A DNA stretch of 36,383 bases from positions 1 through 36,383 of the IMG/VR virus record IMGVR_UViG_3300009786_000035. One strand, 5' to 3'. This DNA comes from a virus. Shown piece by piece: positions 3,859 to 26,169 of the stretch; position 1 is the first letter of the stretch, and every line of letters begins with the position of its first letter. A program made the translations under genes and the position numbers. The notes beneath the pieces were generated by a model, which was not told the origin of the DNA, searched no databases, and saw nothing but the letters and a program-made list of their open reading frames with translations.

Positions 3859-5532
3859 ATGGTCCTGAGTGCCAAGGATGAAGCACGGGCGGTCAAGGCA
3901 GCCAAGACGTTCGGCTTCAACCTGTCCAAGGCGAGGTGGGACACCCCCACCTACGCCCGCCTGCTTGGCATCGAGGTCCACCCCGGTCAGGTCCGGTTCT
4001 TTCAGCAGGTGCTCGCACGGGCACCCGACGCCGTCAAGCCTGCCTACCTGAACCTCGCTCTCTCGTCTGGGAACCGTGCAGGCAAGACGCTGGCCCTGAC
4101 CATCGCCGTCCTGCAACACGCTCAGTTCAAGATCGGGCTGCCCCCACCCGGTGACGACAGCGAGACCGCCCTGACCAAGTGGCGGAAGCACCCGTGGCAC
4201 GGCTACCACTTCGGCGTCCAGCAGGAGGTGGCGGACCTCATGTGGCAGGGCGCGGTGATGCTGTTCGACGGCACCCACCCCGGCCAGAAGGGGAGGGGCT
4301 GTCCGCTGGTGGACTTCCTCGGGCGGAAGATCGTCGAGACCGGTAAGAAAGAGCGTGGCGAGTACCGGTGGATCGTCTTCAGCGAGCAGATGGGTGGCGG
4401 GGAAATCCACTTCCGCACGACCAACGAGAAGGCCGTGGGTCAGTTGGGCAAGGACATGAACCTCATCACGTACGACGAGTGCGGGTTCGACCCGAACCTG
4501 ACGTGGATCGTGAATGAGGTGCTGCACATGCGGCGGCTCTCGACCTCAGGCCAACTCATCCTCATATCTACCCCCTCCGAGTCATTCCAGCAGTTCTCTG
4601 ACGAGTGGGCACGGGGAGACCCCGAGTCGCCTGACCGCCAGCCTTACCATATGAGCATTCGCATGAGCACCCGAGACAACATCGGCTTCGGCATCGAGAA
4701 TTCCGCCTTCGCCCGCATCGTGGCCTCTATGCCCAAGCACCTCGTCGCCCAGAACATCGACGGGCACTTCATCGAGGGACGCAACGCTTTCTTCAACGCG
4801 ATCAGCGTGGACGCCTGCTTCGACCCGGACATGCCGCTTGTCACGGAAGCGGAGGCGGACCACATGTACGTGCAGGGCATCGACCCGGCCATGACCCACG
4901 ACGCCACATGGAGCATCACCCTCGACTACACCAACCCCAAGGTGGTGCTGGGAGTGAGGGCAGAGCGGCGTGAGGGTAAGCAGTCCATGCCCCGGCTGGT
5001 GGCTCTCATCAGCGAGGTCCACTACGCCTACAACGAGAACAAGGCCCGAGCCATGACGGCCTGCGATACGAGCGGCATGGGCGGCAAGGTCTTCAAGGAA
5101 GCCCTCTCAGTGCTCCACCCCTTCCGGGCCGTGGAGTTCGGTGGTGTCAAGAGCCGCAAGATGAAACTGCTCATCGACCTGAAGGGCTACATCGAGAGCG
5201 GCATCCTGAAGTTCCCCAAGCAGGGCGTGTGGCTGGGCCTCCGCAAGCAGTTGCTGGCGTACCGGCTGGACGACAGCAGGCTGGACACGGACGCAGTGAT
5301 GGCACTGGCGGTCGCGGTCAAGCAGTTGGTGGCGGGCACTGCTTCAGTGGCCGTGAGCGAAATCGCCATCCCGTTTGACATGTACGACGAGACCCCATCG
5401 GGTGGCGGGCTGGCCTCCATCCCGAAGAAGGACCAGCGACCTGACGCCAAAGAGATGGTCTACACTGATGCTACGACCCCCGGAGAGGTCGGACGACGCA
5501 TCCGTGCCGGTGCGAACTACGAGGTGCTTTAG
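3859..5532 (+). CDS. terL: Terminase large subunit (packaging ATPase and nuclease)
   Basis: 557 aa, ATG start two bases after the previous stop. The N-terminal ATPase has the Walker A loop SSGNRAGKT (69-77, K76, T77) and Walker B NLITYDE (D206, E207). The C-terminal RNase H-like nuclease shows acidic positions at D342 (QGIDPA), D403 (ACDTSG) and D478 (LDTDAV), as expected for TerL. The length is normal for the family. The enzyme cuts concatemeric DNA and drives it into the procapsid through the portal encoded next. The downstream portal gene begins immediately after the stop, so the two are co-translated. Confidence 0.93.
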   Translation: MVLSAKDEARAVKAAKTFGFNLSKARWDTPTYARLLGIEVHPGQVRFFQQVLARAPDAVKPAYLNLALSSGNRAGKTLALTIAVLQHAQFKIGLPPPGDDSETALTKWRKHPWHGYHFGVQQEVADLMWQGAVMLFDGTHPGQKGRGCPLVDFLGRKIVETGKKERGEYRWIVFSEQMGGGEIHFRTTNEKAVGQLGKDMNLITYDECGFDPNLTWIVNEVLHMRRLSTSGQLILISTPSESFQQFSDEWARGDPESPDRQPYHMSIRMSTRDNIGFGIENSAFARIVASMPKHLVAQNIDGHFIEGRNAFFNAISVDACFDPDMPLVTEAEADHMYVQGIDPAMTHDATWSITLDYTNPKVVLGVRAERREGKQSMPRLVALISEVHYAYNENKARAMTACDTSGMGGKVFKEALSVLHPFRAVEFGGVKSRKMKLLIDLKGYIESGILKFPKQGVWLGLRKQLLAYRLDDSRLDTDAVMALAVAVKQLVAGTASVAVSEIAIPFDMYDETPSGGGLASIPKKDQRPDAKEMVYTDATTPGEVGRRIRAGANYEVL

Positions 5533-7503
5533 TTGTCGGGACAGGGTGGGCCAATCAAGGTTCTGTACGAGGAAGATAACGCCGGGATGGCGGGTGACCC
5601 CGAGACAGCAGCCGTGTTGCGTGAAATCCTCCGACGCAAGGACTCCATCCGTAGTGCCCACGATCGCTTTGTGGAGCAGTGCAACCGGTTCGACAATCTG
5701 TACTACGCCAACGTCATCACCTCTGGCGGTGCGGACCACTGGCCGGAAGACCCCAACCGAACCATCGTGGGCAAGGCCCACGTCAGCCTCAACGTGCATC
5801 CGACCTACGTAGATGTGCCTGCGGCCCTCCAGTCCGTCGTCCCCATCGAGAACATCGTGCCCCCGGAGAGTAACCCTGAAGCCAAGGCGGTCGCTGCGGC
5901 GGTCGAGCGGTTGTACTTTGTGTGGAAAGATGAGGACCAGTTTGAGACCAAGAGCCACAAACTCGCCACGGTCAAGAGCCTCTACGGCCTTGCCTACGGC
6001 AAGGTGGTCTGGAACGAAGACCTCGGTCGCCCCGAACTCCTGCCGGTAGAGCAGCCTCGCAACCTGTGGGCTGGCTACAGCAGCAGCGACTACACCAACT
6101 TGGAGTGGGCGGTCTACTCGTACTTCATCACGCCGACGCAGGCCATCGAAGACTACGGGCTGGACATCAGCGAGGGCATCGAAGAGGGCGACATCGCAGA
6201 GGGCGACACCCGATATGTGTACGTCACGCAGCCCCTCAACCACAACACTCACGACCCTCAGACCCTGAGCAACCGGGATTGGCTTCAGACCCCTCAGTGG
6301 GGCATGCTTCAGGTCAACGACTACTGGTGCCGCAAGCCCAAGGGCAACATCGTCCGTGGCAAGAAGACTGAGATGGAGACCGTCAACGTAATCACCGTGG
6401 GCAACTACGTCGTGTACGACGAGGCCCACCCGGAGTACGAGGGTCGCCTGCCGTACGTGCCCGTCTTCAACACGTTCATCCCCGGCGTTCCTGAGGGACG
6501 GCCTGACCTCTACGACGTTGAGCAGTTGCTTCGTGAGAAGGACGAGCGAGTCTCCGCAGGCGGCACCATGGTGGGTAAACTGACCGGCAAGCAGTTCTGG
6601 CAGTTGACCGGCCCCGAGTCCCCTGACCGAGTCCCGAGCGGCCTCCGTCCCGAGCCTGACAAGGTCGTGGCCCCCGGTGCTGGCAACCGCATCGAACCCA
6701 TCACCCCATGGATGCCTGAGTTCCAACTGGAGCAGTACCTTGCGCGGCTGGACCGTGAGTTGCAGGATGTCTCTGGCTTGAATGACTTGCTACGCGGACT
6801 CGCTCCTAGTCAGGTGTTGAGTAGCGGCAAGGCCATCAACGCCCTCGTGGCGAACTACGAGGCACGCATCACGCTCAGGCGACAGATGTTCTACCAGTGG
6901 CGTATCGACACTTGGGGTCTCACCAAGTTGGTGTGGGGCAACAAGGTCACCGAACTGAAGGCCATCTTTGAGAACGCAGGCAAGTTGGTCGTGAAGTCCC
7001 CGAGCCTTACGCCCCGCGACGACCTTGAGCAGAGCACCCTCGCCATGAATATGCTCAACAGCAAGATTTGGTCTCAGGTCCGAGCGATGGATGCCACTGG
7101 CGTCGAAGACCCCGAAGACGAGCAGAACGAAATCCGCAAGGAACGTCAGGACGCGGCTCTCTTCCCGGCAGACGTGCAGGCACAGGCAGCCCTCATGGCG
7201 ATGATGCAGCAGATGCAGATGCAGGAGCAGCAAAACGCCGCGCAGCAGGGTGCTCCGGGTGCAGGCCCGCTAGACGAAGAGGGTGCCATCGACGCCGAAG
7301 AGGCCCGGCGGAAGGCAGGCGACGAGGCCGCTGGCGAAGGCCAAGAGCAACTACAGGAACCGGGCGAGCAGCCTGCAAGTGGCCCGTCCGCCTTCTCCGG
7401 TCAGGGAGACAACGAGGCAGTGAACCAGTCCATGATCCACGAGGGCGAGGTCAAAAGCCGCATGCTCACCCAGCAGCCGCTGACGGTTGAGGGGCAGGGC
7501 TAG
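5533..7503 (+). CDS. Portal protein
   Basis: 656 aa, TTG start directly after the TerL stop, with GAGGTG six bases upstream inside the terL end. The body (about 30-530) has the mixed helix and wing layout of large podovirus-type portals, with conserved-looking stretches such as SLYGLAYGKVVWNE and a stem region ending in DVSGLNDLLRG before residue 430. The C-terminal 130 residues are low complexity: a Met/Gln run (AALMAMMQQMQMQEQQNAAQ) followed by Ala/Gly/Glu-rich sequence, probably flexible. Twelve copies would form the vertex ring for DNA packaging and connector docking. The call rests on context (directly after TerL) and overall composition. Confidence 0.85.
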   Translation: MSGQGGPIKVLYEEDNAGMAGDPETAAVLREILRRKDSIRSAHDRFVEQCNRFDNLYYANVITSGGADHWPEDPNRTIVGKAHVSLNVHPTYVDVPAALQSVVPIENIVPPESNPEAKAVAAAVERLYFVWKDEDQFETKSHKLATVKSLYGLAYGKVVWNEDLGRPELLPVEQPRNLWAGYSSSDYTNLEWAVYSYFITPTQAIEDYGLDISEGIEEGDIAEGDTRYVYVTQPLNHNTHDPQTLSNRDWLQTPQWGMLQVNDYWCRKPKGNIVRGKKTEMETVNVITVGNYVVYDEAHPEYEGRLPYVPVFNTFIPGVPEGRPDLYDVEQLLREKDERVSAGGTMVGKLTGKQFWQLTGPESPDRVPSGLRPEPDKVVAPGAGNRIEPITPWMPEFQLEQYLARLDRELQDVSGLNDLLRGLAPSQVLSSGKAINALVANYEARITLRRQMFYQWRIDTWGLTKLVWGNKVTELKAIFENAGKLVVKSPSLTPRDDLEQSTLAMNMLNSKIWSQVRAMDATGVEDPEDEQNEIRKERQDAALFPADVQAQAALMAMMQQMQMQEQQNAAQQGAPGAGPLDEEGAIDAEEARRKAGDEAAGEGQEQLQEPGEQPASGPSAFSGQGDNEAVNQSMIHEGEVKSRMLTQQPLTVEGQG

Positions 7504-10500
7504 TGGCACGCTCAGGTAGGTTCGGCTCACTCCCCGGTTCGTCCCCGGACCTCACGTCCACCATCGCTGCTCTGCTGGAGCAGTACGAGAACGCCCGTGA
7601 CCGGAACATCTATTCGGCATGGCTGAATGGCGGCAAGTTTGAGGGCAAGAAGGTCACCGACCAGAGCCTGATGGCGTTCTACAAGATGCGTCGTTCGCAG
7701 TACACCAAGGACGACCCCGAGTACGACTACTGGAACCAGCAGCACTCGCAAATCGACTACCGCATCGGTGAGTCCAAGATGCTCCTGCGGTTTGAGCGGA
7801 ACAACATCAAGGAAGGCGGTGCCGCTGCGTGGTACGCCTCCAATGCAAAGCGTTTTCCCAAGAACAGCGAGGTGTGGCGTGAGGCTATGCGTAACGCCGC
7901 TCGCTTCCAGAAGGCGGCTCAGGAAACTCGCAAGTCCTCGACGGCCACCATGAGCGACAGCGAGAAGTACGCCAAGGCCAACGACCGTATCTACCTCCAG
8001 CGGATCGCCCCGATGGAGGCAGCCGTCGCCGCATGGGAGAATGCCCTAGACCGCAACAACATGTCCGACGAGGCCGACTCGTTTATGACCCTCGGTGGCG
8101 ACAAGATGGCCAAGGACGCCGAGATGCGGCAGTTCATGCGGACTCATGCGGGCAAGTCCTACGGCAAGGCGTTCAAGAAGGCCACTGGCCGAAACTTTAC
8201 CTACAAGGCGTTCAAGCAAGTGCTGCGTCGGGGCCAGCAGGGTTACCGCCAGCAGGCAGGCAACGCCAAGCGGTTCGGCTTCCTCTCCTACGTGCCCGGT
8301 CTCAACCAGAAGGCCGCTGGTGTCGGGCAGTACCGGACGCAGTTGCACGTCTTCGTAGACGACATCTACGAAGACTACGACCGCGAGTTCGTGCGGTTCG
8401 ATGACGAGATGGACGACGCTGAGAACGCTCTGGAACGTCAAGCCGTGCGGGACTCGTTCAAGGGTATCTTCACGAAGATTGCCAAGCGAGCAGCCAAAGG
8501 GAAGCGGGGCGACCACGTCCTCGCCGCGTCCATCGACAACACCCAGAACGCCATCGACGGCAAGAAGGGCGTCACCTCAGCCCGTAACGAGTTGATGGCC
8601 GGTGGCAAGTCAGGCACCTCCAAGGCCGCTGCCAGCACCGACCCCGTATACGAGACCGTCCGCATCACCAACCCCGATGGCACCCAGACGGAAGTCAGCA
8701 CCTCCGTCCTCGACCTTTCACAAGGTGGAGACATCGAGGACATCCTCATCTCGGCCATCAACGACAAAGAGAAGATCATCCCCGGCTATGAGTCGGATGA
8801 GTGGATGTTCGTCAAGGCCTACGACGGCACGCTGGTCGAAGTCGAGACCGCTGAGTGGCGGAAACGGCACTCGTTCCTTCCCGGCTCGTCCGCACGAGAC
8901 AACGACTTCATCGAGAACACGGTCGTACTCGCTGGTGGCGTGAAGGCCAAGGTCATGCTTCCGGTCCAGACGGCGATGCTCCACTTGGGCATGGTAAATA
9001 CTGACCCCATGCCCGTCGAAGCAGTCTCGTACAAGACGGTCCACGGAGACATCCGCTACCAGTACGTCGGCCCTGAGGGTTGGATGCAGGACACCGCTGC
9101 CCACCCGCTGGACTGGGCCAACAACTTCGATGATGGCGAGGAGCGAACCGAGACCGGTCATTGGTACGACGAGGTCAATCATAAGATTGTCAAGGTGGTC
9201 TCCGACGCAGACGACCAAGGCAACATGCGGGTCAATGCCCAGTTCGCTGCCTATGTGTGGGGCAAAGCCATCGTTATCTACGCCGAGAAGAACGGCTTCA
9301 CGCTAGACCCCTCGACAGACGTCTACATAGACAAGAACGGGAAGCCGGTCGAGGTCTCGCAGGCGGACGTGATGCCCACGTTCAAGAACATGCTGGTGGC
9401 CCACGGCACGACCTTCGATGAAGACGGCTCCCCCATCATCCCCGGTGGCGACCTTGTCAAGACCGTGCAGGTGGCGAACCCCGCCTTCAGCAAGGCTCAG
9501 GCCCCCGGCTCCGTCAGGCCCGACAAGGATGGCGGTGCTCTACCCAACCGCTACAAAACCATCGACTACCTCGCAGGCGGGCGTACAGCGTACGACGCCA
9601 TGTCCGAAGAGGACCAAGCGGCGATCCAAGCCGCTGCGTTTGACCTGAACGAGAACGAAGACATCTCCCCAGCGACCCAGCACCTCGTCAATGCCCGTGA
9701 AGAGTTGGGCTATGCGTACGAGGATGGCACGTTCATCGACGCCTCCCGAGCAGACGCAGAGGGCGTAGTCGCAGAACTGCCAGTGGCACAGCAGGGTCCG
9801 TCGGGTTTGGTTCGTCTAGGCGCAGCCCCGACGGCTCCAGAAGTCGGGCAGGCCGGAGCGGTAGGCCCATCGCAGGCGGTCACCGCGCAGGATCGGTGGC
9901 AACCGCCTTCAGGAAGAGGACAAGCATCTCTGGACCTATGGGTCCGCGGCCTTGAGGGTTCGGACGTGCAGGCCCCTGAGGCCACCCGCATCCCTGAGAC
10001 CATCGACAAAATCATCACCCTGAACGCTGTCCTGACGGAGGCTGGCTCGACGCTGGATACCTCAGGCCGCATCGCTCAGTATCAGGGTACGGTCGGCCGC
10101 AGGGCAGCCGCCGCACTGACCGCTGAGGAACGCCACGAGATCGTCATCGAAATCGCTGTTGCCGAGGGCAACGGCGATAACCCGGATTACATCTATGTAA
10201 TCGCTGGTGAACTCGACGCTCTCGCCGCAGCCGGTGACGCCGGTCTGAGCGAGCGTGAGTTTTTCGACCTGACTGGCTCGATGTCGAAAGATGAGAGGTA
10301 CCGTGCCATCCAGCAGTCGAAGCGGCTCCGTGCGAGCAGCCCTGACAGGAACCGGGCCACGCAGGACTTCCTCTCCGAGACCCTGTTGGACGACCTCCGT
10401 GACGCCAAGTGGAGCGATGCGCAGATCGAAGAGTCCTACCCCGTCATGTTCGCTGAAGAGAAGAAGGTCAACTTAGCGAAGCAGTCTTCCGCCCGTCGCT

Positions 10501-10982
10501 TCAAGGCTGGCTACGGCCCCGACCCGGCACTGGCCGCACTGGGACCGGCTAGTGGAGCCGGGTCTCCGATCATCGACAACGCTGCACAGACGCTGAAGAA
10601 CGCCATCTCTGGCGTCCAGATGGCAATACCGACCGCAGCCATGCCGATGACGCCCGCTTCTGCCTCAGGGAACATCTATGCTGACTTCGCGCGCACCAAC
10701 CGCCGCCTCGTGCTCCCGACCGCCACGACGGTGAAGCCGCTTGTGGCACAGCAGGGTCCATCGGGTTTGGTCCGTCTAGGTGCAGCCCCGACGCTGGCCG
10801 CAACGAAGCCGCTGACCGCCCCCCGGTCCACGCTTCGCCCGACGCTGGACGACGGGCCTTTCCCCTCGCCGTCGCCACAGAGGGGCCTTGGCCTTGGCGA
10901 TGTCATCCCTCCCCTTACGATAGGCCGAACGCCATTCGGTGTTGAGAACGCCTCTGAGGGCAGCAAGGAGTACGACTACTAG
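7503..10982 (+). CDS. Large virion-associated protein with duplicated 17-residue motif
   Basis: 1159 aa. GTG start overlapping the portal stop (TAGTG), with GAGGGG upstream in the portal end. The N-terminal 330 residues are helical, charged and tyrosine-rich. The middle (about 370-730) is mixed alpha/beta with acidic patches and no recognised enzyme motif. The last 400 residues are low in complexity (Ala/Pro/Ser) and contain VAQQGPSGLVRLGAAPT twice, at 761-777 and 1081-1097. It lies between portal and scaffold, a position where some phages encode internal or ejected proteins. An ejection or portal-associated protein is the best guess; no family is recognised. Confidence 0.55.
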   Translation: MARSGRFGSLPGSSPDLTSTIAALLEQYENARDRNIYSAWLNGGKFEGKKVTDQSLMAFYKMRRSQYTKDDPEYDYWNQQHSQIDYRIGESKMLLRFERNNIKEGGAAAWYASNAKRFPKNSEVWREAMRNAARFQKAAQETRKSSTATMSDSEKYAKANDRIYLQRIAPMEAAVAAWENALDRNNMSDEADSFMTLGGDKMAKDAEMRQFMRTHAGKSYGKAFKKATGRNFTYKAFKQVLRRGQQGYRQQAGNAKRFGFLSYVPGLNQKAAGVGQYRTQLHVFVDDIYEDYDREFVRFDDEMDDAENALERQAVRDSFKGIFTKIAKRAAKGKRGDHVLAASIDNTQNAIDGKKGVTSARNELMAGGKSGTSKAAASTDPVYETVRITNPDGTQTEVSTSVLDLSQGGDIEDILISAINDKEKIIPGYESDEWMFVKAYDGTLVEVETAEWRKRHSFLPGSSARDNDFIENTVVLAGGVKAKVMLPVQTAMLHLGMVNTDPMPVEAVSYKTVHGDIRYQYVGPEGWMQDTAAHPLDWANNFDDGEERTETGHWYDEVNHKIVKVVSDADDQGNMRVNAQFAAYVWGKAIVIYAEKNGFTLDPSTDVYIDKNGKPVEVSQADVMPTFKNMLVAHGTTFDEDGSPIIPGGDLVKTVQVANPAFSKAQAPGSVRPDKDGGALPNRYKTIDYLAGGRTAYDAMSEEDQAAIQAAAFDLNENEDISPATQHLVNAREELGYAYEDGTFIDASRADAEGVVAELPVAQQGPSGLVRLGAAPTAPEVGQAGAVGPSQAVTAQDRWQPPSGRGQASLDLWVRGLEGSDVQAPEATRIPETIDKIITLNAVLTEAGSTLDTSGRIAQYQGTVGRRAAAALTAEERHEIVIEIAVAEGNGDNPDYIYVIAGELDALAAAGDAGLSEREFFDLTGSMSKDERYRAIQQSKRLRASSPDRNRATQDFLSETLLDDLRDAKWSDAQIEESYPVMFAEEKKVNLAKQSSARRFKAGYGPDPALAALGPASGAGSPIIDNAAQTLKNAISGVQMAIPTAAMPMTPASASGNIYADFARTNRRLVLPTATTVKPLVAQQGPSGLVRLGAAPTLAATKPLTAPRSTLRPTLDDGPFPSPSPQRGLGLGDVIPPLTIGRTPFGVENASEGSKEYDY
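9783..9833 (+). repeat. Direct repeat copy 1 (51 bp)
   Basis: Encodes residues 761-777 of the 1159-aa protein. It differs from the copy at 10743-10793 at only three positions, all third-codon and synonymous. The copies are 960 bp apart, so recombination between them would delete exactly 320 codons in frame. Confidence 0.9.
10743..10793 (+). repeat. Direct repeat copy 2 (51 bp)
   Basis: Second copy of the segment at 9783-9833, encoding residues 1081-1097 of the same protein with an identical 17-aa sequence. The flanking residues differ between copies, so the conserved unit is the peptide itself. Confidence 0.9.
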
Positions 10983-10999: not shown

Positions 11000-13900
11000 A
11001 TGACATACGATCCGGGGTACAGGCCGTTTGAGGACGAGCCTGAACGTCAAGGGCTGAATGGTCAGTACGGACCTTCCCCAGCCAGTCCTCTCGACTCCCG
11101 TTACGGCGGACCAGACCCGTGGGAGAAGGGGCTACGGGCTTACACCGACCTCGGCAAGCCCAACTATGGCTCCCGTCCGTTTGAGGGGCTAGGCAAGACC
11201 AACGTCGCCACCTCCCTCCCGTTCGCACCCTTCGATACCCGTGGCCGCGATCAGGCCCCGACTCCAGTGGGTGCCCCGCAGCCCGGTCTGTTCCAAGCCT
11301 TCGGGCAAGGCTTGACCCAGTTGGCGATGAACACCGTCATCCCTCTGGATATGATTACCGAGCACCTGTTCGGTTCGTCCACGGGCGAAGACATCGAGAA
11401 GGGCATCGCAAATGGCATCGGTGCCATCGGTGGGGCCTTCGACGGTATCCTCGACTTCATGCCCACGTTCGACTTTCTGCCCGGTGGCGGGGACATCGAA
11501 GGCACCTTCGACGCCCTCCCTGAGGACGAGTTGAAGCGGAGTTTCGACGTGATGATCGCCCAGAACCCAACGGCACGCCTCGAATACATGAAGCAGTTCC
11601 TCGACAGCCGTGGTCCTGACATCGCACGCATGTACGGATTTAGTGGGGACATGGGCGAACTGGCCGGTCCCAGTGCGAGTTTCAGTGAGCAGTTGCGGCG
11701 TATCGTCTTCGGGGGCATGACTGTCCTCGGGAACCAGACCGCAAAGGCGTATGTGAACTCGGCCATGCGGGACATCGACGGGACCGTCTTCAACGCTGAT
11801 ATGGGGGGCCTGCCTGAGGAACTTCAGGCCATCCGCAAGCGTGTGGAGGGCGGGGAGATCACCCGTGAAGAGGCGATTGACGAAATCTCAGCAGGCCAGT
11901 TCCGGTGGACCCACGACGAGGGACCGGGCGGCATGTTCATCAACCTCACGCTAGACATCCTCACTGACCCTCTCATCTGGGCCTCGTTCGGGCTGGGTGG
12001 ATTTGCCAAGGCCGGTGCTAACGGTGCCGTCCGCATGGCGCAGATTAGGACCGCCCAGTACCTGAAGAAGAACGGTGCCCTAGAGGGTCGCATGATTGCG
12101 GACCTCAGCAAGAAGTTCAAGTTGCCGTCTGAGGCCATCATCAAGAGCCAGAGAGATGACATCGTCAAGGCCAAGTACGACTGGGCCGTGAAGTACGCCC
12201 CGACCGAGCATGCACAGGCCATCGGCAGCCTCGGGCGTACGCAGAAGACGCTCTTCAAGTTGGATCACATCATCCAGCCAGCGGCTATGGTCGCCAACGA
12301 GATCGACACCATGTTCGGTATGTTCGGTGCGACCCATGTCGGTCGTCGCCTGTCCGCCTTTCGTGGGGAGAAGCACGTCGAAGGCATCGCCCGAGCGGTG
12401 GGCGTCAAGCGAGTGCAGCGGGTCCAGAATTTCTTTGGCCCCGAGAAGTTCGATGAGTTCACCGCCTACTTCGGCATCTTCTCAGCCAACCAGTCAGCCA
12501 AGATGGCACAGAAGGTCGAGGTCAGTCAACTGTTGGGTGCTGACCGTGCCGTGGACTCCACCGGCAAGCGTATCAACCCTGTCGTGGACGCCCCCGAGCA
12601 CACGCCGACACAGTCCGCCCGAGGCACCATCAACAGCAGCATGGAAGAGGCCCTGCCCAAGGAAGCCGAGCAGGCGTTCCTTGAGTACATGGAGGTCTTC
12701 CTCCCACACGGTGCCCAGTCCGCTGAGGCCGTCGCATCCGCCATGAAGCAGGCCAAGGCAGCCATGGCCCGAGACCTCGCCGCAGCCACCGGGAAGACCG
12801 AGCAGGCAGCCCTGAAGTTCCTTGAGGGAGCCGACCGACGTGAGATGTCCTTCATCCACGCCATCCTCTATGGCCGTCAGGTCCAGATGTTCAACGAGGC
12901 CAAGGTGCAGCACGTCGCTGCGGTGCAAGGGCACCTCGACGCCGCCATCAAGAAGGGTGACGCCGCTGAGGTCACACGCCTCACCGAAGAGTTGTCCAAC
13001 GTCAACCGCCTGACCCTCGTCAGCGAGAACATGCTGACGAGGACGGACGCCGCACGGGTGCTGCACGACATCAACGCCCCCGGACAGAAGGGCATCGACG
13101 CAGCCAAGGATGCCGTAGATCGCTACGACCAGTTGGACATCAACTGGGGCAAGGACACGCCCGGAGGCACCCTCACGGGTGCCGAGTTGGTCACGACGCT
13201 CACAGCACACCTAGACGCCCTGCTGAAGGCTGGCGGTGCCCTGACGGACGTGGTGAGCACCAGCAAGTTGAACCCACGCATCGCAGCGAGCCTAGACAGC
13301 CGCTACCGGGTCGGAATGGCCCCTACTGACGTGTGGGGCATCACCCGTGAAGTGGACGGGAAGATTATCGGGGTCAACCCATTCGTGGAGGCCCTGAGCG
13401 AGAACACCAAGAGCCTGAGCCGGGGCCTGACGTGGTACGACCGCATGAAGCAGGGTCTTGCCGGTCCCATCAGCGGCTCCCGGCTGCACGCCGAAGCCAA
13501 GATGCGGATGCGTGTCATCGGAGCGTCCGAGTTCGGGATGCGTCGAGCCGACACCGATGCCCTCTTCTCGGCCATCAACAGGGAGAGCATCACCCGACAG
13601 AAGGGTGCCCGCTCGTTCGGTGCGGAGGAACTACAGAAGATCGCTGACGCCGCTGGCGTCAAGGTGGACGACACCATTCAGGCCAAGTACGGTGGCCGTG
13701 CCCTCCTACACATGGTGCTGAAAGCCTACGAGGGTGAACTCGCCATGATGGGCGTCACTTCTCGGTCCACCTCCCGGCTCAAGAGCGTCGTCGGACGGCA
13801 GCCACTGGGCGACAACATCATCGGCAAGATCTCGGAAGACCTCTACCCCCGCCTGAGGTTCGCCCTCTCGCCCATCTTCCTCGCCATGGAGTACGTCGAG

Positions 13901-16900
13901 GGTCCGTTCTTCGGCATCCTCCGGGGCATCAAGCCGGGGTGGCGATACGGTAGAGATGATGTAAGCCTGAACTCTATCCTTGAGTACATCCAGCCCGAGT
14001 TCACCGAGCACGGTGCGGGCATCGGTCGTGCCCAGTTGGCCTACGCTGACAGTTTCGGTGCGAAGACCGTGACCGAAGCCTCGTTCGCCACGAAGACGTG
14101 GAACAAGGTGATGCCAGCTAAGTTCGCACGCAACGCTGTCCGCATCCGTGGGCCTCGCTGGTACAACGTCTACGAGATGAAGAAACTGCTCTACGTCCGA
14201 CAGGCCGGTAAGGAAGCGGGCCTGAACTGGAAGCGGACCATGGAGGTCGAGTTCCCTGAGGCCTACCGCTATTGGCAGATTGCCGCCGACAGCACCGACC
14301 CGACCAAGGTCTTCATTGCGTTCATGGAGGAACGAGGTGCGTTCAACCCTGAGGCTCGACACGCCGTCCACATGTTCGATGCGATGAAGCCCGACAGCAT
14401 GGGGCTGGAGCGTATCCGCATGGGCGACGTGGCTGCGTGGCAGGGCTTTGAGACCCGTGCCGCACTGCGTGAGGCCATCGACAACGGCAGTTGGACCCGA
14501 GACCAGTTCATCGCCAAGTACACCGACATCGGTGGCAACCGCAAGTACGCCGAGCGGGCGTGGCAGGTTGCGGACGGCTTTACGGAGGGCGAGTGGAACG
14601 CAGCCCTCGTTGACGCACTGGGCAAGGAAGCGGCAGAGGGTGCCATGAACTTCCACCAGTGGATGGCGAACGCACAGGGCGTGACCATCGAAGAGTTCCT
14701 GAACCGGGAGTACGGACAGGTCGCAGCGAAGGTGGACAAGGCACGGCAGGTACCCGGCGTGGCCCTGAAGCAGACCGTGCGTGCCAGCCTTGAGGGTATC
14801 GGGGCCACCGTTCACGAGCGAGGCAGCCGCCTACACAACGCCGTCAAGGAACGGTCCAGTTCCTACCTCCCTGAGTCCACCCGCAAGGAGTCCGCCACCA
14901 CGGCAGCCATCACCGCTGTCGAGCAGGCCAAGACGACCGGCGACGGGGCTGCATGGAAGGCCGTAGACGACGAGGGCTTCAACGCCAAGGTGCAGGGCTT
15001 CCTCGACGCTGAGGGCGGCAAACTCCCCGGCAAGAAGAAGGGTGGAGGCACGGTCAAGTTGACCAAGGACTCCGGTGCCCGCACGTACTATTACTACGAC
15101 CCGGCCACGGGCCTGCGAGTGGGCTACGTGTCGCTCGACGTGAACGGTCTCGTCGCCTCCATGGAAGTGCTCCCGTCCGCTCAGGGCAAGGGCCTCTCCA
15201 AGGGCATGCTCGACGCCGTCAACCAGAAGGAGAAGGGCAAGTTGGAGCAGGGGTTCAACAGCCCCGCTGTCTCGTTCACTGAGGCTGGCAAGGCCACCGC
15301 CCTGAAGTGGCTCCGTGAGAAGGAAGTCACCATGGGTGACGCAGGCTCTGCCCTGACCGAGTCCATCGACCAAGCCCAGCGAGCGGTAGCCGCAGGCAAG
15401 GGCCGGCCACCGGGCATGTCCCCGGAGCGAGCCGGCATGCTCTCGGACCTCATCGAGGAACGTGAGGCCGTGTACTCCGACATGTACGCCACCATGCGTC
15501 ATGCCTTAGGCAGCAGCGACGACAACATGAAGGCCGCTGCGAACTGGTACGACGAGATGACGACCATGTTCCTCGGGCTGGTAGAGAAGATGCCTGACTC
15601 GATGATGGACGCTCTGATGAAGCAGTGGGATGAGTCCGCTGCCTCGGGCACCCTGAAGCGTGCTGACGGTGCCACCACCAAGGCCCTGAAGGACATGACG
15701 GCCGAAGAGAAGCAGGTTGAGTTGGCCGCACGGCTGAACATCGCCTTCTCGGGCAGCCAGATGAACACCTCCGTCTTGGACGGCATGAAGTACGTCGCCA
15801 AGATGCTGGACGAAATCTTCGAAGACAAGTCACCTGCCCGACTGGCAGACGAGGCTGAGTTCCGGCTGAAGGAGTCCGGTTCGAAGAAGGGTGCGAGGTA
15901 CTGGGACGAGTTGAAGGACGAGACCCTGTCCGCCGAGCGTCGGAAGGAAATCCTCAAGGACTCCAAGGGCGAGCACCTGTACGCCGAGTTCATTGACGAG
16001 GCGACCACGGATGCCCGTCGCAAGGAAATCGTCCAGTCCAAGGTCGAGACCCGCTACGGCTTCAAGGTCGTGGGTCGCCGCATGGAAGACCTCCTGCGTG
16101 ACTTCGGCAACATGGACCCCGAGAAGATTGCCCAGAAACTGTCCGACTTCAACGACAACCTCGCTGGTCGGTACACCCGCACGTCCTCACCCGTGAGCAT
16201 CAACGGCGTGGCCCTCCAGCCTGCCGCCATGGACATCTGGATGAAGCGTATCTTCGGTCACGGCGACGAAGCCTATCTGGGCTACCTCGCTGACGACTAC
16301 ATGCGTGTCAACAAGTTGGACCCGACCGACGCCAACCGGCTCATCGCTGAAGAGGCAGTCATCGAGCATCAGGGCTGGGGACCAGAGGCCCGCACTGAGG
16401 GCGATGCCCCGACCGAGATGCAGTACGAGTGGATGCTGGAGCGGACCAACGAGTTCAAGGACTGGCTCAACAAGGAGGACATCCCCGGACCTAACGGCGA
16501 GTGGGCGGCTCACGAAATCCAAGCGTTGCTGTGGGTCGGTGAGCAGAAGCGACTCCAGTACGAGGGCACGCCGACGTTCGGCACCCTGACGCAGACCGGT
16601 GCCCAGTTGGTGACCGAGCCGCAGAAGACCCGCATCAACCCCAACGTGCTGGAGTTGATGGTGGAGCACGGCGACGAGGCCGGTCAGGTCATGGCTAACA
16701 TCCAGCGAGACATCAACACGCCCCTGATGGCATCCATTGCAGAGAACACGGGTGTCGTGGCTCTACGGACCCTTGACGGGTCTGGTACGGGCAGCACGAA
16801 CGTGGTCTTCGCCAGCAAGGACGCCTCCATGCGTGCGGCAGGGGCTATGGCCGTTGCTCTGGACGAGCCGGTCATCCGCATCGGTAACGGCAGCACCCAC

Positions 16901-18502
16901 CACACGGTGGATGTTGCGTTCGACCCTGTGATGACGCAGGCCGACGTGAAGCCCTATCTCACCCTGCTCTCGGACTTCGTTGCGGAGTACATCCCCGACG
17001 AGTTCACCCACATGAGCACGGCCCTGCTGGACGACAACTCGTTTGCTGTCCGCAGCATCACAAAGAAGAACATCGCCGGGACCAAAAAGGCCCCGCTCGA
17101 CTTCGACTCGCTCCCACCCAATATCGTTGCGGCACTGGAGGACGGCTCGTGGGTCAAGGCGTTCGACCCTGACGCACAGGCCATGCCGGTCCACATCGAA
17201 CGTCGGCGTGTAGATTTCAGCCGTATCACCCCAGAGGAAGGTCGCAATCTTGTCAACTCAGCAGAACTGGTCAATCAGTACAGGGAGGGAGTTGTCGGGT
17301 CAGCGGAACGGGCTTACACCCACCACGCTCCCGAGTCGTCGGTCGCCTCTGAAGGGCGAGCCGCCCTTGCAGACGGGGCAACCCGAACCCAGCGAGTCCG
17401 AGTCCCCGCAGGAGGGAAGCCGGGTGGTGTACGAGCCGGGTTCAAGCCTCGGGCCGACGCTTCCCGTGCAGACCTCACAACCGCCACCCGAGCAGAGCGG
17501 GCAGCCCTCTACTTCGTCAACAATGCCACCGACGCAAGCACCGGAGTCCACGAGGCCTTCCACCTCTTCGCCCGCCTCATTGACGACTCCGCAAAGCGTG
17601 AACTCCTTGACGCCTACAATGTCGCCCACAATCTCACAGGACGTAGGGTCAAGCGTTCCTTCGGAGTCATCGAAGAGTGGGTAGCCGAGCAGTTCGAGGG
17701 CTTCGCAGCGGGCGACCTCCCGCCCAACGCCACCTACACGGCGACGTTCAAGTCGTTTGCCGAGTGGGGCCAGAGGAACCCCGGCATCAAGGCGGACGCT
17801 ACGGTGGTGCCTGTCTTCCAGAGGGTGCTGGACTCATGGAGCGACGTACCCGGTGGCTTCTCGTCACTGGACGAACGCCGCATCTGGGAGTCAGCCCGCA
17901 TCGGCCTGCTGAGGGCAGAGGAAGAGGCTCACTCGACGGCCTACTATCGGCGTTCCCCCAACTGGATGGGACGCACCATCAACCACCCGTACCTCGGGAT
18001 GTACCCGGCTAACTACATGTGGGGCAAGGTGCTTCCTGAACTGACCCGCTTCATGTTGAGGCGACCCTTCGGACTCAAGGCTCCGATGGGCGGGATGTTG
18101 ATGTATAACCACGTCCATCGTGCCCTCTCTGAGGAACTGGCTACCAACCCGGACCTGTCGGGCTTCATCGAAGACCACCCGGACACCGTCCGCTTCCTCA
18201 CGATGATGCTCCCCGGCAACCCTGTGGAGATGCCGGTCAACTTGCCCGTGGTGGCCCGCCGAGCCATGGAGCACGACGCTGAGAACCGTGTCCGCCGCAT
18301 GCAGGGCGTGAAGGAGGAACCCTTTGAGTTGGCAGCCAGCGTGGGGGACATGATTTCCTACAGCGTCGGGTTCGCCAACCTGCCTGAGAGGGTAGGAGAC
18401 ATGCTGGGCGAGTTCGCCGGGGACGACGGACCCAACGCCGGGAAGACCCAAGTGGTCGGACGGCTAACCCCCACTCCATCGGCAGCCGAGTTCATCAGGT
18501 AG
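11000..18502 (+). CDS. Giant multidomain virion protein with GNAT-like and HExxH metallopeptidase-like segments
   Basis: 2500 aa, ATG start with TAGACT at the leaderless position. It fills a fifth of the window. Hydrophobic glycine-rich segments near 130-150 and 310-345 could interact with membranes. Residues about 1335-1440 resemble a GNAT acetyltransferase: a YVSLDVNG strand, then VLPSAQGKGLSKGML with the Q1395-x-x-G1398 acetyl-CoA loop. After a low-complexity linker (about 2090-2170) comes HEAFH (H2184, E2185, H2188) with EEWVAE (2225-2230), the pattern of a zinc-dependent gluzincin peptidase. The C-terminal 180 residues are hydrophobic and aromatic (HPYLGMYPANYMWGK). Its place before the scaffold suggests an internal, ejected protein acting in the host or on its envelope. 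The domains are read from motifs only. Confidence 0.6.
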   Translation: MTYDPGYRPFEDEPERQGLNGQYGPSPASPLDSRYGGPDPWEKGLRAYTDLGKPNYGSRPFEGLGKTNVATSLPFAPFDTRGRDQAPTPVGAPQPGLFQAFGQGLTQLAMNTVIPLDMITEHLFGSSTGEDIEKGIANGIGAIGGAFDGILDFMPTFDFLPGGGDIEGTFDALPEDELKRSFDVMIAQNPTARLEYMKQFLDSRGPDIARMYGFSGDMGELAGPSASFSEQLRRIVFGGMTVLGNQTAKAYVNSAMRDIDGTVFNADMGGLPEELQAIRKRVEGGEITREEAIDEISAGQFRWTHDEGPGGMFINLTLDILTDPLIWASFGLGGFAKAGANGAVRMAQIRTAQYLKKNGALEGRMIADLSKKFKLPSEAIIKSQRDDIVKAKYDWAVKYAPTEHAQAIGSLGRTQKTLFKLDHIIQPAAMVANEIDTMFGMFGATHVGRRLSAFRGEKHVEGIARAVGVKRVQRVQNFFGPEKFDEFTAYFGIFSANQSAKMAQKVEVSQLLGADRAVDSTGKRINPVVDAPEHTPTQSARGTINSSMEEALPKEAEQAFLEYMEVFLPHGAQSAEAVASAMKQAKAAMARDLAAATGKTEQAALKFLEGADRREMSFIHAILYGRQVQMFNEAKVQHVAAVQGHLDAAIKKGDAAEVTRLTEELSNVNRLTLVSENMLTRTDAARVLHDINAPGQKGIDAAKDAVDRYDQLDINWGKDTPGGTLTGAELVTTLTAHLDALLKAGGALTDVVSTSKLNPRIAASLDSRYRVGMAPTDVWGITREVDGKIIGVNPFVEALSENTKSLSRGLTWYDRMKQGLAGPISGSRLHAEAKMRMRVIGASEFGMRRADTDALFSAINRESITRQKGARSFGAEELQKIADAAGVKVDDTIQAKYGGRALLHMVLKAYEGELAMMGVTSRSTSRLKSVVGRQPLGDNIIGKISEDLYPRLRFALSPIFLAMEYVEGPFFGILRGIKPGWRYGRDDVSLNSILEYIQPEFTEHGAGIGRAQLAYADSFGAKTVTEASFATKTWNKVMPAKFARNAVRIRGPRWYNVYEMKKLLYVRQAGKEAGLNWKRTMEVEFPEAYRYWQIAADSTDPTKVFIAFMEERGAFNPEARHAVHMFDAMKPDSMGLERIRMGDVAAWQGFETRAALREAIDNGSWTRDQFIAKYTDIGGNRKYAERAWQVADGFTEGEWNAALVDALGKEAAEGAMNFHQWMANAQGVTIEEFLNREYGQVAAKVDKARQVPGVALKQTVRASLEGIGATVHERGSRLHNAVKERSSSYLPESTRKESATTAAITAVEQAKTTGDGAAWKAVDDEGFNAKVQGFLDAEGGKLPGKKKGGGTVKLTKDSGARTYYYYDPATGLRVGYVSLDVNGLVASMEVLPSAQGKGLSKGMLDAVNQKEKGKLEQGFNSPAVSFTEAGKATALKWLREKEVTMGDAGSALTESIDQAQRAVAAGKGRPPGMSPERAGMLSDLIEEREAVYSDMYATMRHALGSSDDNMKAAANWYDEMTTMFLGLVEKMPDSMMDALMKQWDESAASGTLKRADGATTKALKDMTAEEKQVELAARLNIAFSGSQMNTSVLDGMKYVAKMLDEIFEDKSPARLADEAEFRLKESGSKKGARYWDELKDETLSAERRKEILKDSKGEHLYAEFIDEATTDARRKEIVQSKVETRYGFKVVGRRMEDLLRDFGNMDPEKIAQKLSDFNDNLAGRYTRTSSPVSINGVALQPAAMDIWMKRIFGHGDEAYLGYLADDYMRVNKLDPTDANRLIAEEAVIEHQGWGPEARTEGDAPTEMQYEWMLERTNEFKDWLNKEDIPGPNGEWAAHEIQALLWVGEQKRLQYEGTPTFGTLTQTGAQLVTEPQKTRINPNVLELMVEHGDEAGQVMANIQRDINTPLMASIAENTGVVALRTLDGSGTGSTNVVFASKDASMRAAGAMAVALDEPVIRIGNGSTHHTVDVAFDPVMTQADVKPYLTLLSDFVAEYIPDEFTHMSTALLDDNSFAVRSITKKNIAGTKKAPLDFDSLPPNIVAALEDGSWVKAFDPDAQAMPVHIERRRVDFSRITPEEGRNLVNSAELVNQYREGVVGSAERAYTHHAPESSVASEGRAALADGATRTQRVRVPAGGKPGGVRAGFKPRADASRADLTTATRAERAALYFVNNATDASTGVHEAFHLFARLIDDSAKRELLDAYNVAHNLTGRRVKRSFGVIEEWVAEQFEGFAAGDLPPNATYTATFKSFAEWGQRNPGIKADATVVPVFQRVLDSWSDVPGGFSSLDERRIWESARIGLLRAEEEAHSTAYYRRSPNWMGRTINHPYLGMYPANYMWGKVLPELTRFMLRRPFGLKAPMGGMLMYNHVHRALSEELATNPDLSGFIEDHPDTVRFLTMMLPGNPVEMPVNLPVVARRAMEHDAENRVRRMQGVKEEPFELAASVGDMISYSVGFANLPERVGDMLGEFAGDDGPNAGKTQVVGRLTPTPSAAEFIR

Positions 18503-18558: not shown

Positions 18559-19107
18559 TTGGCAGAAGACGAGAGTCAGCAGTCCTCCACCGAAGACAAG
18601 TCCACCGACACCGGCAGTGATGCAGGCGAGTCGCAGGACGAGGGAAGCGGCGAGAGCACTCCTGCGGACATCGAAGCCTACTGGAAGAAGCGACAGTCCA
18701 ACTCCGACAAGGCGAACGCAGCGGCGATGAAAGTCCTACAGGGCCAACTCGACGTAGCACAGGCACCGAAGACCACCGAGAGTGGTTCCACGGACGGGGG
18801 CAGTCAGGCCAACGCACGAGCCGATGCCGCTGAGAGGCGTGCAGACGAGGCGGAAGCGAGGGCCACGGCGAGTGACCTAGCAGCGAAGTACCCCAACGCC
18901 AGCAAGGCAGTGGGACGTGCAGTCGTCGTCATGGGTGAGCCTGAACTGGCAGCCTTGGAGACTACGCTTGACTTCGATGCAACCGCACCTCGTATCACTG
19001 ACAAGAACAATCCCGCCCGCACGACTGGAGAGTCCAGCAAGTCTGTCGAGGACATGAGCCTCGCTGAGTTGCAGGAGCACTTCAAGTCAATCCCCTACGA
19101 AGGGTAG
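18559..19107 (+). CDS. Capsid scaffolding protein
   Basis: 182 aa, TTG start with a weak GCGAG site. The protein is highly acidic and Ser/Glu/Asp/Ala-rich. The first 35 residues are disordered, and a helical, likely coiled-coil stretch (about 85-120, ADAAERRADEAEARATASDL) follows. The C-terminus ends in a short amphipathic helix (SLAELQEHFKSIPYEG) that could touch the capsid protein. Composition, size and position immediately before the capsid gene are typical of phage scaffolds, which guide procapsid assembly and are then removed. The sequence itself is not family-specific. Confidence 0.75.
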   Translation: MAEDESQQSSTEDKSTDTGSDAGESQDEGSGESTPADIEAYWKKRQSNSDKANAAAMKVLQGQLDVAQAPKTTESGSTDGGSQANARADAAERRADEAEARATASDLAAKYPNASKAVGRAVVVMGEPELAALETTLDFDATAPRITDKNNPARTTGESSKSVEDMSLAELQEHFKSIPYEG

Positions 19108-19131: not shown

Positions 19132-20112
19132 TTGGCTAACGACACCTCCACCACGAACTTCGGTGGAACGGTGCAAACGCTCATCTCAAAGGGCGTTGCA
19201 GAGAACCTGCGAAACAACCTTATCTGGCTTCAGGAAGGCTCATTCCTGAAGGCGAGCATCGTCGCCGGGACCAATCAGGCCCGCTTCGTTGCCTACGGTG
19301 ACCTCACGATTGATGCCTCTGCGGTGTCGGTCGAGGGAGTGGCTAACTCCCCCGAAGAGTTCGCCATCGGCTACCAGACCCTGACGGTCGCCCAGCGGAT
19401 GCGTTCCATCCGTCTGACCGATGTGGTCATGGATGAGAGTCCCCACGCACTGATGACCGAAGCCGCCGAACGCATCGCGTTCAACGCCTCGGCTGTCGCA
19501 GACTTCGTGACGGCAACTGCTGCCGAAGCCATCACCGCCACCTCGTGGGCGGACGCTGTCGCTAACCGTGCCGCTCTGACCACGGGCGGCGTCCTGAATG
19601 GCGATGAGGTCAAGCGTGTGGTCGCTGAGATGAAGTCCAACAACATCCCAACTTTTGCGGATGGCTCCTACCACGCCATCGTGTCACCTCTGGCGGTCTA
19701 CGACCTCCAGTCCGATACGGCGGTCGGTGGCTGGATCGAGGTCTCGAAGTACGCTGCCTCGGGCAACCTCCTAACGGGCGAGATTGGCAAGTATGCCGGT
19801 GTTCGCTTCATGGAGAGCAACCTCGGCACCCAGCCCGACTCCACGGGTGGTGTTGCGGATGCCTTCCCCGTCTACCGGACCTATTTCTTCGGTCCTGATT
19901 GGTTCGCCTTCGGTGACCTCCAGAGCATCCAGTCCTACCTCGTCACCCCCGGTGGTGACCATGATGACCCTGCTGCTCAGGCGGCTCTGGTCGCTTGGAA
20001 GGGCATGTACGGCATCGAAATCCTCGGTGACAGTGCAGAGGCTTCATATGGCACCGTGAGCGGCGGCACCAAGTACCGCGTCCTCGAAACCATCGGCACG
20101 CTTACCTACTAG
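19132..20112 (+). CDS. Major capsid protein, N4-gp56-like (HK97 fold)
   Basis: 326 aa, TTG start at 19132 with AAAGG eight bases upstream. The arrangement is that of N4-gp56/P22-type coat proteins: an N-terminal arm, a helical 'spine' region near 100-140 (MTEAAERIAFNASAVADFVT), YHAIVSPLAVYDLQSD near 180-195, and IGKYAGVRFMESN near 218-230. This is the HK97-like fold that builds the icosahedral shell. It follows the scaffold gene by 24 nt, and the unit is closed by a strong terminator after the stop. Confidence 0.85.
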   Translation: MANDTSTTNFGGTVQTLISKGVAENLRNNLIWLQEGSFLKASIVAGTNQARFVAYGDLTIDASAVSVEGVANSPEEFAIGYQTLTVAQRMRSIRLTDVVMDESPHALMTEAAERIAFNASAVADFVTATAAEAITATSWADAVANRAALTTGGVLNGDEVKRVVAEMKSNNIPTFADGSYHAIVSPLAVYDLQSDTAVGGWIEVSKYAASGNLLTGEIGKYAGVRFMESNLGTQPDSTGGVADAFPVYRTYFFGPDWFAFGDLQSIQSYLVTPGGDHDDPAAQAALVAWKGMYGIEILGDSAEASYGTVSGGTKYRVLETIGTLTY

Positions 20113-24793: not shown

Positions 24794-26169
24794 TGCAGGC
24801 CACCATTGTCCACTCCGCTCAGGGGTTCTTCAACCTCGACGTGGAGGCGGACCCACCTGAGGATGGGCAGACTGACGTAGACGCAGGCCTCTACTACATC
24901 GACACAGAGACCGGCATCGGCTACACCCGTGACGCCATCGACGGGGATGACGCAGCGGACGGCTCATGGACAGCGAGGGGCAAGGTGCTCCCGTTCGTCG
25001 GTGACCAAGGTGCCCCCGGCGCACCCACGGGGCTGGCCGTGGTCGCCACCATCGTGGAGAACGAGGACGGCACGCAGGTTCCCGGCTTCACCATCGACTG
25101 GGACGCCAACAGCGAGGACGACCTACTCGGGTACGTCATCCACATCGAGGCCACCACTGCCACATGGGCCAACCCCATCGAGGTGCTGGTCGGCATCCGC
25201 AACGCCATCCTCATCCGAGAGGGCTTCGTTAGCGGCCTCGGCTACGACTTCCGCATCGCCGCCCGTGACGCAGAGGGTTACACCTCAACGTGGAGTCCCA
25301 CTGTCAGCGGAACAGCAGCATCAGATGGAACAGCACCCGCCGTACCGGGCAACGTCACACTCATCTCGGGCTACCGCCAGTTGGGAGTTACGTGGGACCG
25401 TGCCGCTGAGGCGGACTTCGCCTTCTATCAGGTTCGACGCCACCTGACCTCCGACGCAGAGACTGCGGTGGTCATCGAGACCAAGTCCAACCACATCATC
25501 CTCGCGGGCCTGACCGAAGACGTGGGCTACGACGTGGACGTGCGGGCCATTGACCTGGGCGGCAACGTCGCCACCTCGGACGTGGACCTCACCGGCCTGC
25601 CTCACCTAGAGAACCCGGACACGGGTTGGTCAGTGGTGGTGGCCGAGACCCCGACCCTTATCGGGTCAGCGGACATCGTCGCTGGCTCAGTGGTCACCAA
25701 CTTCCTGAGCACTGGCACCCTCTCGGCGGACCAGATTGACTCGGGCGACCTCAGCGTCGGGCGGGTCGGAGACCCCGGCACCATCGAGATGTTCGATGCA
25801 CAGGGCCGCTCCATCGGCACGCTCTCAGTGAATGGGCTGGTCCTCATCAACCCGGACAACACGCAGGAGGCCATGTGGCTGACGGCAGGCGTCCTCAAGT
25901 TCTCACAGGTGTACGACGGCGACGTGGACACCACGACGTGGACGACAGCCCTCAACGCTGACGGCCTGAACGCCTCGGCCATCACCTTCGGCACCATGGG
26001 AGGCGGTAGCAACAGCATCCCCAACGCTGGCTTTGAACTGTCGGTGTACGCCGTCCTGACCTCGGGTCTCTGGACGGCCTCTGCTGGCTCCCCCTCATGG
26101 GACGATGCGACCGACATGGTCAATCTCGACATCTCCGGTGCGGACTTGACCATGACCAGTGCCAGTTAG
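24793..26169 (+). CDS. FN3-repeat tail protein, probably C-terminally truncated
   Basis: 458 aa, ATG start in a TAATG overlap. The N-terminal 70 residues are a small beta domain. Two FN3 domains follow (about 75-172 and 180-270; TIDWDANSEDDLLGYVIHIE and GVTWDRAAEADFAFYQVRRH). Residues 285-400 form a fibre-shaft region (VTNFLSTGTLSADQIDSGDL). The end, GGGSNSIPNAGFELS and onward to W-x(6)-SPSW, reads like the first strands of a carbohydrate-binding domain that normally runs 130-150 residues but stops after about 50. A homing endonuclease gene begins 11 bp before the stop, so the missing part may have been lost on insertion. Confidence 0.6.
   Translation: MQATIVHSAQGFFNLDVEADPPEDGQTDVDAGLYYIDTETGIGYTRDAIDGDDAADGSWTARGKVLPFVGDQGAPGAPTGLAVVATIVENEDGTQVPGFTIDWDANSEDDLLGYVIHIEATTATWANPIEVLVGIRNAILIREGFVSGLGYDFRIAARDAEGYTSTWSPTVSGTAASDGTAPAVPGNVTLISGYRQLGVTWDRAAEADFAFYQVRRHLTSDAETAVVIETKSNHIILAGLTEDVGYDVDVRAIDLGGNVATSDVDLTGLPHLENPDTGWSVVVAETPTLIGSADIVAGSVVTNFLSTGTLSADQIDSGDLSVGRVGDPGTIEMFDAQGRSIGTLSVNGLVLINPDNTQEAMWLTAGVLKFSQVYDGDVDTTTWTTALNADGLNASAITFGTMGGGSNSIPNAGFELSVYAVLTSGLWTASAGSPSWDDATDMVNLDISGADLTMTSAS

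What the first reader, a model, noticed from the sequence alone, without database searches (positions are those of the whole stretch)
11000..18502. 2500-aa virion protein combining GNAT-like and zinc-peptidase-like segments
It has an acetyl-CoA loop pattern (Q1395-x-x-G) and, far downstream, HEAFH with EEWVAE, plus hydrophobic ends. Placed between portal and scaffold, it resembles a package of enzymes delivered with the DNA. An ejected acetyltransferase or protease acting on host targets would be a new kind of takeover factor.
Basis: partly seen in the sequence, partly recalled or inferred. Interest (0 to 1): 0.65.

Follow-up and report, generated by a model that had tools for sequence, protein, structure and literature searches.

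The report
Modular giant phage head-locus protein
An uncultured phage carries, among its head genes, a 2,500-residue protein built on a shared framework whose middle holds an exchangeable enzyme (here an acetyltransferase-like domain, in relatives an ADP-ribosyltransferase, a nuclease-like domain or a DNA methylase), followed by a conserved zinc-peptidase motif, so it is probably a package delivered into the host with the DNA, a known strategy in a previously undescribed family.

Summary
A single 2500-aa ORF (11000-18502, +) has a GNAT-like segment around Q1395 and HEAFH at H2184 with EEWVAE downstream. The zincin is well supported: HExxH occurs in 40 of 51 related loci, H2184/E2185/H2188 are invariant in the 19- and 24-member alignments, and the profile aligns in register with the HExxH domain of phage N4 virion RNA polymerase, above all shuffles. 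The GNAT call is moderate: the only Acetyltransf_7 match in the record (E=2.9e-5), but below Pfam's cut-off and with Ser in the third motif position. The closest relative lacks the segment, so it is an insertion; homologues carry ADP-ribosyltransferase, ParB-like, C5-methylase or another GNAT domain instead. Gene order (terminase, portal, 1159-aa protein, this protein, scaffold-like, capsid, tail) is conserved. A short N-terminal motif, RPFxx(L/I/V)GK, may be a packaging signal. There are no clear transmembrane segments. Best reading: a virion-packaged, ejected 'polyvalent' protein with a swappable payload and a C-terminal zincin, laid out like N4 vRNAP or P1 DarB. It is a new family of a known kind, not a new kind of takeover factor. 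Packaging, ejection and both activities are inferred.

The parts
11000..18502 (+). 2500-aa giant protein ORF
   Evidence: identical in a second contig (L001); homologues in about 50 loci
11174..11206 (+). N-terminal motif R59-PFEGLGKTNV-69, candidate capsid-targeting signal in a Gly/Pro-rich tail
   Evidence: same pattern near the N-terminus of 16 family ORFs, 2 other hits in 874k residues of six-frame ORFs; function inferred from the P1 DarB precedent
11177..14869 (+). conserved N-terminal block, residues 60-1290, function unknown; most conserved part at residues 900-1000
14873..15373 (+). payload insertion (residues 1292-1458) absent from the nearest relative L015
   Evidence: occupancy 24-33% at residues 1351-1500 against 0.8-1.0 in most of the conserved N- and C-terminal regions
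15101..15250 (+). GNAT-like core with the QGKGLS acetyl-CoA loop (Q1395)
   Evidence: PF13508 E=2.9e-5 for the record, below curated cut-off; four GNAT Pfam models are the only hits of the isolated segment; AF2 beta-beta-beta-alpha order at low confidence
15992..16795 (+). shared middle region, residues 1665-1932, unknown
   Evidence: blastp matches in L015, L019, L020, L023, L024
17477..17734 (+). zincin-like metallopeptidase domain, HEAFH 2184-2188 and Glu 2225/2226
   Evidence: similarity to the N4 vRNAP HExxH region and to a crAss-like virion protein; AF2 pLDDT about 70-90 around the two motif helices
17957..18079 (+). C-terminal signature with NHPYLGMYPANYMWGKVLP (predicted helical C-terminal domain)
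   Evidence: conserved block used to find the loci
7503..10982 (+). 1159-aa companion ORF, conserved neighbour upstream
5533..7503 (+). portal protein
   Evidence: PF05133 E=0.0011, below cut-off; synteny
3859..5532 (+). terminase large subunit
   Evidence: PF03237 E=0.0017, below cut-off; synteny
18559..19107 (+). putative scaffold, by position
   Evidence: synteny; no domain hit above cut-off
19132..20112 (+). major capsid protein
   Evidence: phrog_1357 major head protein, E=3e-29

Best explanation
This is a giant polyvalent-type phage protein, most likely packaged in the head and pushed into the host with or ahead of the DNA. Proposed steps: (1) a disordered N-terminal tail with the RPFxx(L/I/V)GK motif targets it to the procapsid (inferred); (2) the roughly 1200-residue N-terminal block serves packaging or passage through the tail and envelope (inferred); (3) the central bay carries an exchangeable effector, here a GNAT-like domain that would acetylate host proteins early in infection (domain moderately supported, activity inferred); (4) the C-terminal zincin, followed by a helical domain as in N4 vRNAP, processes the chain itself or releases or regulates the payload, and may cut host proteins (domain well supported, role inferred). 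Shown here by computation: the ORF, the homologous family, the conserved gene order, payload exchange between homologues, and the zincin motif with N4 and crAss-like relatives.
For: 51 loci from one family scan, including the window's own duplicate contig, share N- and C-terminal blocks. Gene order terminase, portal, p1159, giant ORF, scaffold-like, MCP, adaptor and tail proteins is kept where the flanks are held, with some inserted ORFs and local swaps downstream. Zincin: HExxH in 40 of 51 loci; invariant H2184, E2185, H2188; hhalign score 31.5 against N4 vRNAP and 39.1 against a crAss-like virion protein, versus shuffle maxima of 24.4 and 22.6. Payload: GNAT E=2.9e-5, the only Acetyltransf_7 match in the record; over 46 family records the Acetyltransf_7 hits (2), ADP-ribosyltransferase hits (5, of which 4 over cut-off) and ParB_N hit (1) lie in reading frames whose lengths equal the giant ORF; a DNA methylase lies in L044's giant ORF; L015 lacks the GNAT and has ParB at another site. 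Precedents: polyvalent proteins, P1 DarB packaging signal, N4 vRNAP with HExxH and helical CTD.
Against: No virion proteomics and no cultured relative: no tblastn match to the giant protein, terminase or portal in 50,697 phage records. The GNAT is below Pfam's gathering score and has Ser in the third motif position; its AF2 model has pLDDT 54 and Foldseek found no significant match. The zincin model's Foldseek search was also inconclusive. Eleven distant loci lack HExxH, some of them cut at the 5' end, so the peptidase is not essential to the whole family. No payload was recognised in most members. No clear transmembrane segment.
Confidence: 0.65

Rival explanations
1. It is a head-assembly factor: the zincin is a maturation peptidase acting inside the procapsid and the protein or its fragments stay in the head or are lost, with no host effector role.
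For: Fixed position directly upstream of scaffold-like and capsid genes; P1 DdrB, annotated a possible metallopeptidase, is a head component that aids DarB addition to the capsid.
Against: ADP-ribosyltransferase, ParB-like, methylase and GNAT domains exchanged in the middle have no evident assembly role; some related loci lack HExxH.
Confidence: 0.15
2. It is mainly an ejection-channel or internal structural protein; the enzyme-like domains are degenerate and not catalytic.
For: Long conserved N-terminal block of unknown function; GNAT motif with Ser and a sub-threshold score.
Against: HExxH is invariant among members at about 25-50% identity to the window protein, as expected under catalytic or metal-binding constraint; no membrane segment.
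Confidence: 0.13
3. The zincin, not the GNAT, is the main effector and cleaves host proteins after ejection (a variant of the delivery model).
For: The zincin is the recurrent enzymatic motif of the family; such a role is one option named in PMC5512222.
Against: Self-processing explains equally well why the zincin is constant while payloads change; no substrate known.
Confidence: 0.2

Closest known systems
Phage polyvalent proteins (Iyer et al. 2017, PMC5512222)
   Same: Giant multidomain protein in a portal-terminase phage next to virion genes, combining a zincin-like metallopeptidase with a protein-modifying enzyme; GNAT, ART and ParB domains are all on the published list.
   Different: Pfam PF18818 (MPTase-PolyVal) and PF18857 (LPD38) do not match 20 family records (no control genome rang over the cut-off, so this is weak); the N- and C-terminal framework has no convincing Pfam or PHROG match in the members scanned.
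Phage N4 virion RNA polymerase gp50
   Same: Giant virion protein with N-terminal block, central enzyme, HExxH domain and helical C-terminal domain (paper); the zincin profile aligns in register to its HExxH region, score 31.5 against a shuffle maximum of 24.4.
   Different: No RNA polymerase domain recognised here; the central payload is a GNAT-like segment; no sequence similarity found outside the HExxH region in that comparison.
Phage P1 DarB and DdrB
   Same: Giant or large head proteins; DarB is packaged, thought to enter the cell, and has an N-terminal packaging signal; DdrB is annotated as a possible metallopeptidase.
   Different: DarB is annotated as a DNA methylase and helicase; DdrB scores no better than shuffles against the zincin profile.
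Giant virion protein of crAss-like phage cr273_1
   Same: Homologous-looking HExxH...EE segment, hhalign E=1.3e-4.
   Different: 5794-aa protein of a Crassvirales phage; similarity seen only over the peptidase segment.

Membership tests
Phage polyvalent proteins | Two or more unrelated enzymatic domains in one polypeptide | tested here: met
   Zincin and GNAT-like segment; the GNAT is below the curated cut-off
Phage polyvalent proteins | Encoded among virion genes of a portal-terminase phage | tested here: met
Phage polyvalent proteins | Packaged in the virion and delivered to the host | not testable with these tools
   needs proteomics of virions and infected cells
Zincin metallopeptidases | HExxH plus a downstream Glu ligand | tested here: met
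   H2184, E2185, H2188 invariant; Glu 2225/2226 conserved in the closer members
Zincin metallopeptidases | Zincin fold with zinc bound | tested here: inconclusive
   Motif helices predicted at pLDDT about 70-90, Foldseek without a significant match
Pfam MPTase-PolyVal (PF18818) | Match to the curated profile | tested here: not met
   No match in 20 family records at E up to 10; not filed as a member
Pfam LPD38 (PF18857) | Match to the curated profile | tested here: inconclusive
   No match in 20 records, but nothing rang in the control genomes either
GNAT acetyltransferases | Profile match to a GNAT family | tested here: inconclusive
   PF13508 19.9 bits, E=2.9e-5 for the record, curated cut-off 27; four GNAT models are the only Pfam hits of the segment
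GNAT acetyltransferases | Acetyl-CoA loop [QR]xxGx[GA] | tested here: not met
   QGKGLS: Ser in the last position; called GNAT-like, not filed as a curated member
GNAT acetyltransferases | GNAT fold | tested here: inconclusive
   AF2 gives beta-beta-beta-alpha order but mean pLDDT 54; Foldseek not significant

The most novel reading that the evidence does not exclude
The gene is a fixed payload bay: a constant framework with a portable N-terminal head-targeting motif and a C-terminal zincin, into which unrelated enzymes (GNAT, ADP-ribosyltransferase, ParB-like nuclease, DNA methylase) are swapped by recombination, much as polymorphic toxins swap their ends, making the family a natural, modular phage protein-delivery system.
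Probability: 0.4. Interest if true: 0.7.

Novelty: new member of a known kind. Interest (0 to 1): 0.45.

Why it matters
It adds a family found in about 50 uncultured phage contigs, with no match to the window's giant protein, terminase or portal in the held collection of 50,697 phage records, to the small set of phages thought to inject multi-enzyme proteins. The same framework carrying different enzymes in different genomes makes the delivery-versus-payload question directly testable, and the conserved N-terminal motif offers a candidate packaging signal comparable with that of P1 DarB.

Tried and rejected
Whole-protein searches of the phage records (tblastn), the PDB sequences and PHROGs found nothing; terminase and portal also had no match in the phage records, nor did one distant member's giant protein. 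A scan of genome contigs with the C-terminal alignment found no host or prophage copy. The GNAT segment alone found only the window's own sequence in viral contigs and nothing in phages. AF2 models were too weak for Foldseek. P1 DdrB was tested as a zincin relative and did not exceed shuffles. A GNAT in L021 was considered and not claimed (PF13527 E=0.22). An ADP-ribosyltransferase-like stretch seen by eye in L010 got no Pfam or PHROG support and is not claimed. Membrane-spanning ends were considered and rejected.

Full report
Observation. The window is itself a virus record. It holds one uninterrupted 2500-aa ORF at 11000-18502 (+), identical in a second contig. HExxH is expected 0.054 times per shuffled copy of the protein; the bare [QR]xxGx[GA] pattern is expected 4.7 times, and the actual site, QGKGLS, does not fit it strictly. 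The highest 19-residue hydropathy mean is 1.24, away from both ends, so hydrophobic ends in the sense of membrane segments are not supported. A 1159-aa ORF lies between the portal and this gene.

Family. The whole protein found no relative in 50,697 phage records and only its own duplicate in viral contigs. The zincin stretch alone found two relatives, and an alignment of the three found 51 loci in viral contigs, the duplicate included. BLASTP shows conserved N-terminal (about 60-1290) and C-terminal (about 2030-2470) blocks, while the middle is shared only in part. The C-terminal signature around NHPYLGMYPANYMWGKVLP is the best conserved stretch. Gene order terminase, portal, p1159, giant ORF, scaffold-like gene, major capsid protein, then adaptor and tail genes is kept in the loci where the flanks are held, with insertions and local swaps downstream of the capsid gene in some.

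Zincin. HExxH lies upstream of the C-terminal signature in 40 of 51 loci; 11 loci lack it, several of them cut at the 5' end. In the 19- and 24-member alignments both histidines and the glutamate are invariant. The Pfam MPTase-PolyVal profile does not match. A profile comparison with the N4 virion RNA polymerase aligned its HExxH region in register, score 31.5 against a shuffle maximum of 24.4; a crAss-like giant virion protein scored 39.1 against 22.6; P1 DdrB did not exceed shuffles. The crAss-like sequence had been picked because it was the best weak hit, so its E-value is somewhat flattered.

GNAT and payload exchange. The segment at about residues 1358-1444, scanned alone, hits four GNAT models and nothing else, all below their cut-offs; in the whole record it is the only Acetyltransf_7 match, E=2.9e-5. 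The predicted structure has the expected strand-strand-strand-helix order but low confidence. The closest relative, L015, aligns on both sides but lacks residues 1292-1458 and carries a ParB-like domain at another site. Alignment occupancy falls to 24-33% over residues 1351-1500, against 0.8-1.0 in most of the conserved N- and C-terminal regions. Elsewhere in the family the giant ORF carries an ADP-ribosyltransferase (L033, L034, L038 by Pfam scan; five records by genome search), another GNAT over one Pfam cut-off (L024) or a DNA methylase (L044; one member of its alignment has a C5 methylase, E=3.4e-34). Over 46 records the Acetyltransf_7, ADPrib_exo_Tox and ParB_N hits all lie in reading frames whose lengths equal the giant ORF.

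N-terminus. A motif of the form RPFxx(L/I/V)GK lies near the N-terminus of 16 family ORFs, with degenerate forms by eye in others, and has only two other matches in 874,000 residues of six-frame ORFs from the same loci. The pattern was written from these sequences and they are homologous, so the count shows specificity and conservation, not function. In P1 DarB the first 30 residues suffice for packaging, which makes a targeting role testable.

Mechanism and comparison. The best-supported reading is a virion-packaged, ejected polyvalent protein with a swappable enzyme and a constant zincin. Shown by computation: the ORF, family, synteny, payload exchange and zincin motif. Inferred: packaging, ejection, catalysis, host targets and the role of the zincin (self-processing is favoured because it is the recurrent enzyme while payloads differ). 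The concept is known: polyvalent proteins of phages combine zincin, GNAT, ART and ParB domains (PMC5512222), and N4 vRNAP has an HExxH domain followed by a helical C-terminal domain (PMC12633501). This is therefore a new family of a known kind.

Noticed in passing
window 33388-34131 (-): ORF that looks by eye like a Rad52-type single-strand annealing protein; not tested against any library.
   Followed up: no
window 34308-35117 (-): ORF that looks by eye like a PD-(D/E)XK (RecB-like) nuclease; not tested.
   Followed up: no
window 31110-31886 (+): ORF with a 'NGGHALFLKGW' stretch that looks by eye like a papain or C39-type peptidase; not tested.
   Followed up: no
window 7503-10982 (+): The 1159-aa companion protein contains the stretch VAQQGPSGLVRLGAAPT twice; its homologues sit in the same place next to the giant ORF in many loci.
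   Followed up: partly
window 26159-26572 (+): HNH endonuclease (phrog_5046, E=1.1e-17) between tail genes.
   Followed up: no
L012 14599-15600: Reading the crAss-like giant ORF with the standard code meets stops; genetic code 15 reads it open there.
   Followed up: partly
L010 residues 1380-1500 of its giant ORF: A stretch resembling an ADP-ribosyltransferase by eye; no Pfam or PHROG support.
   Followed up: partly
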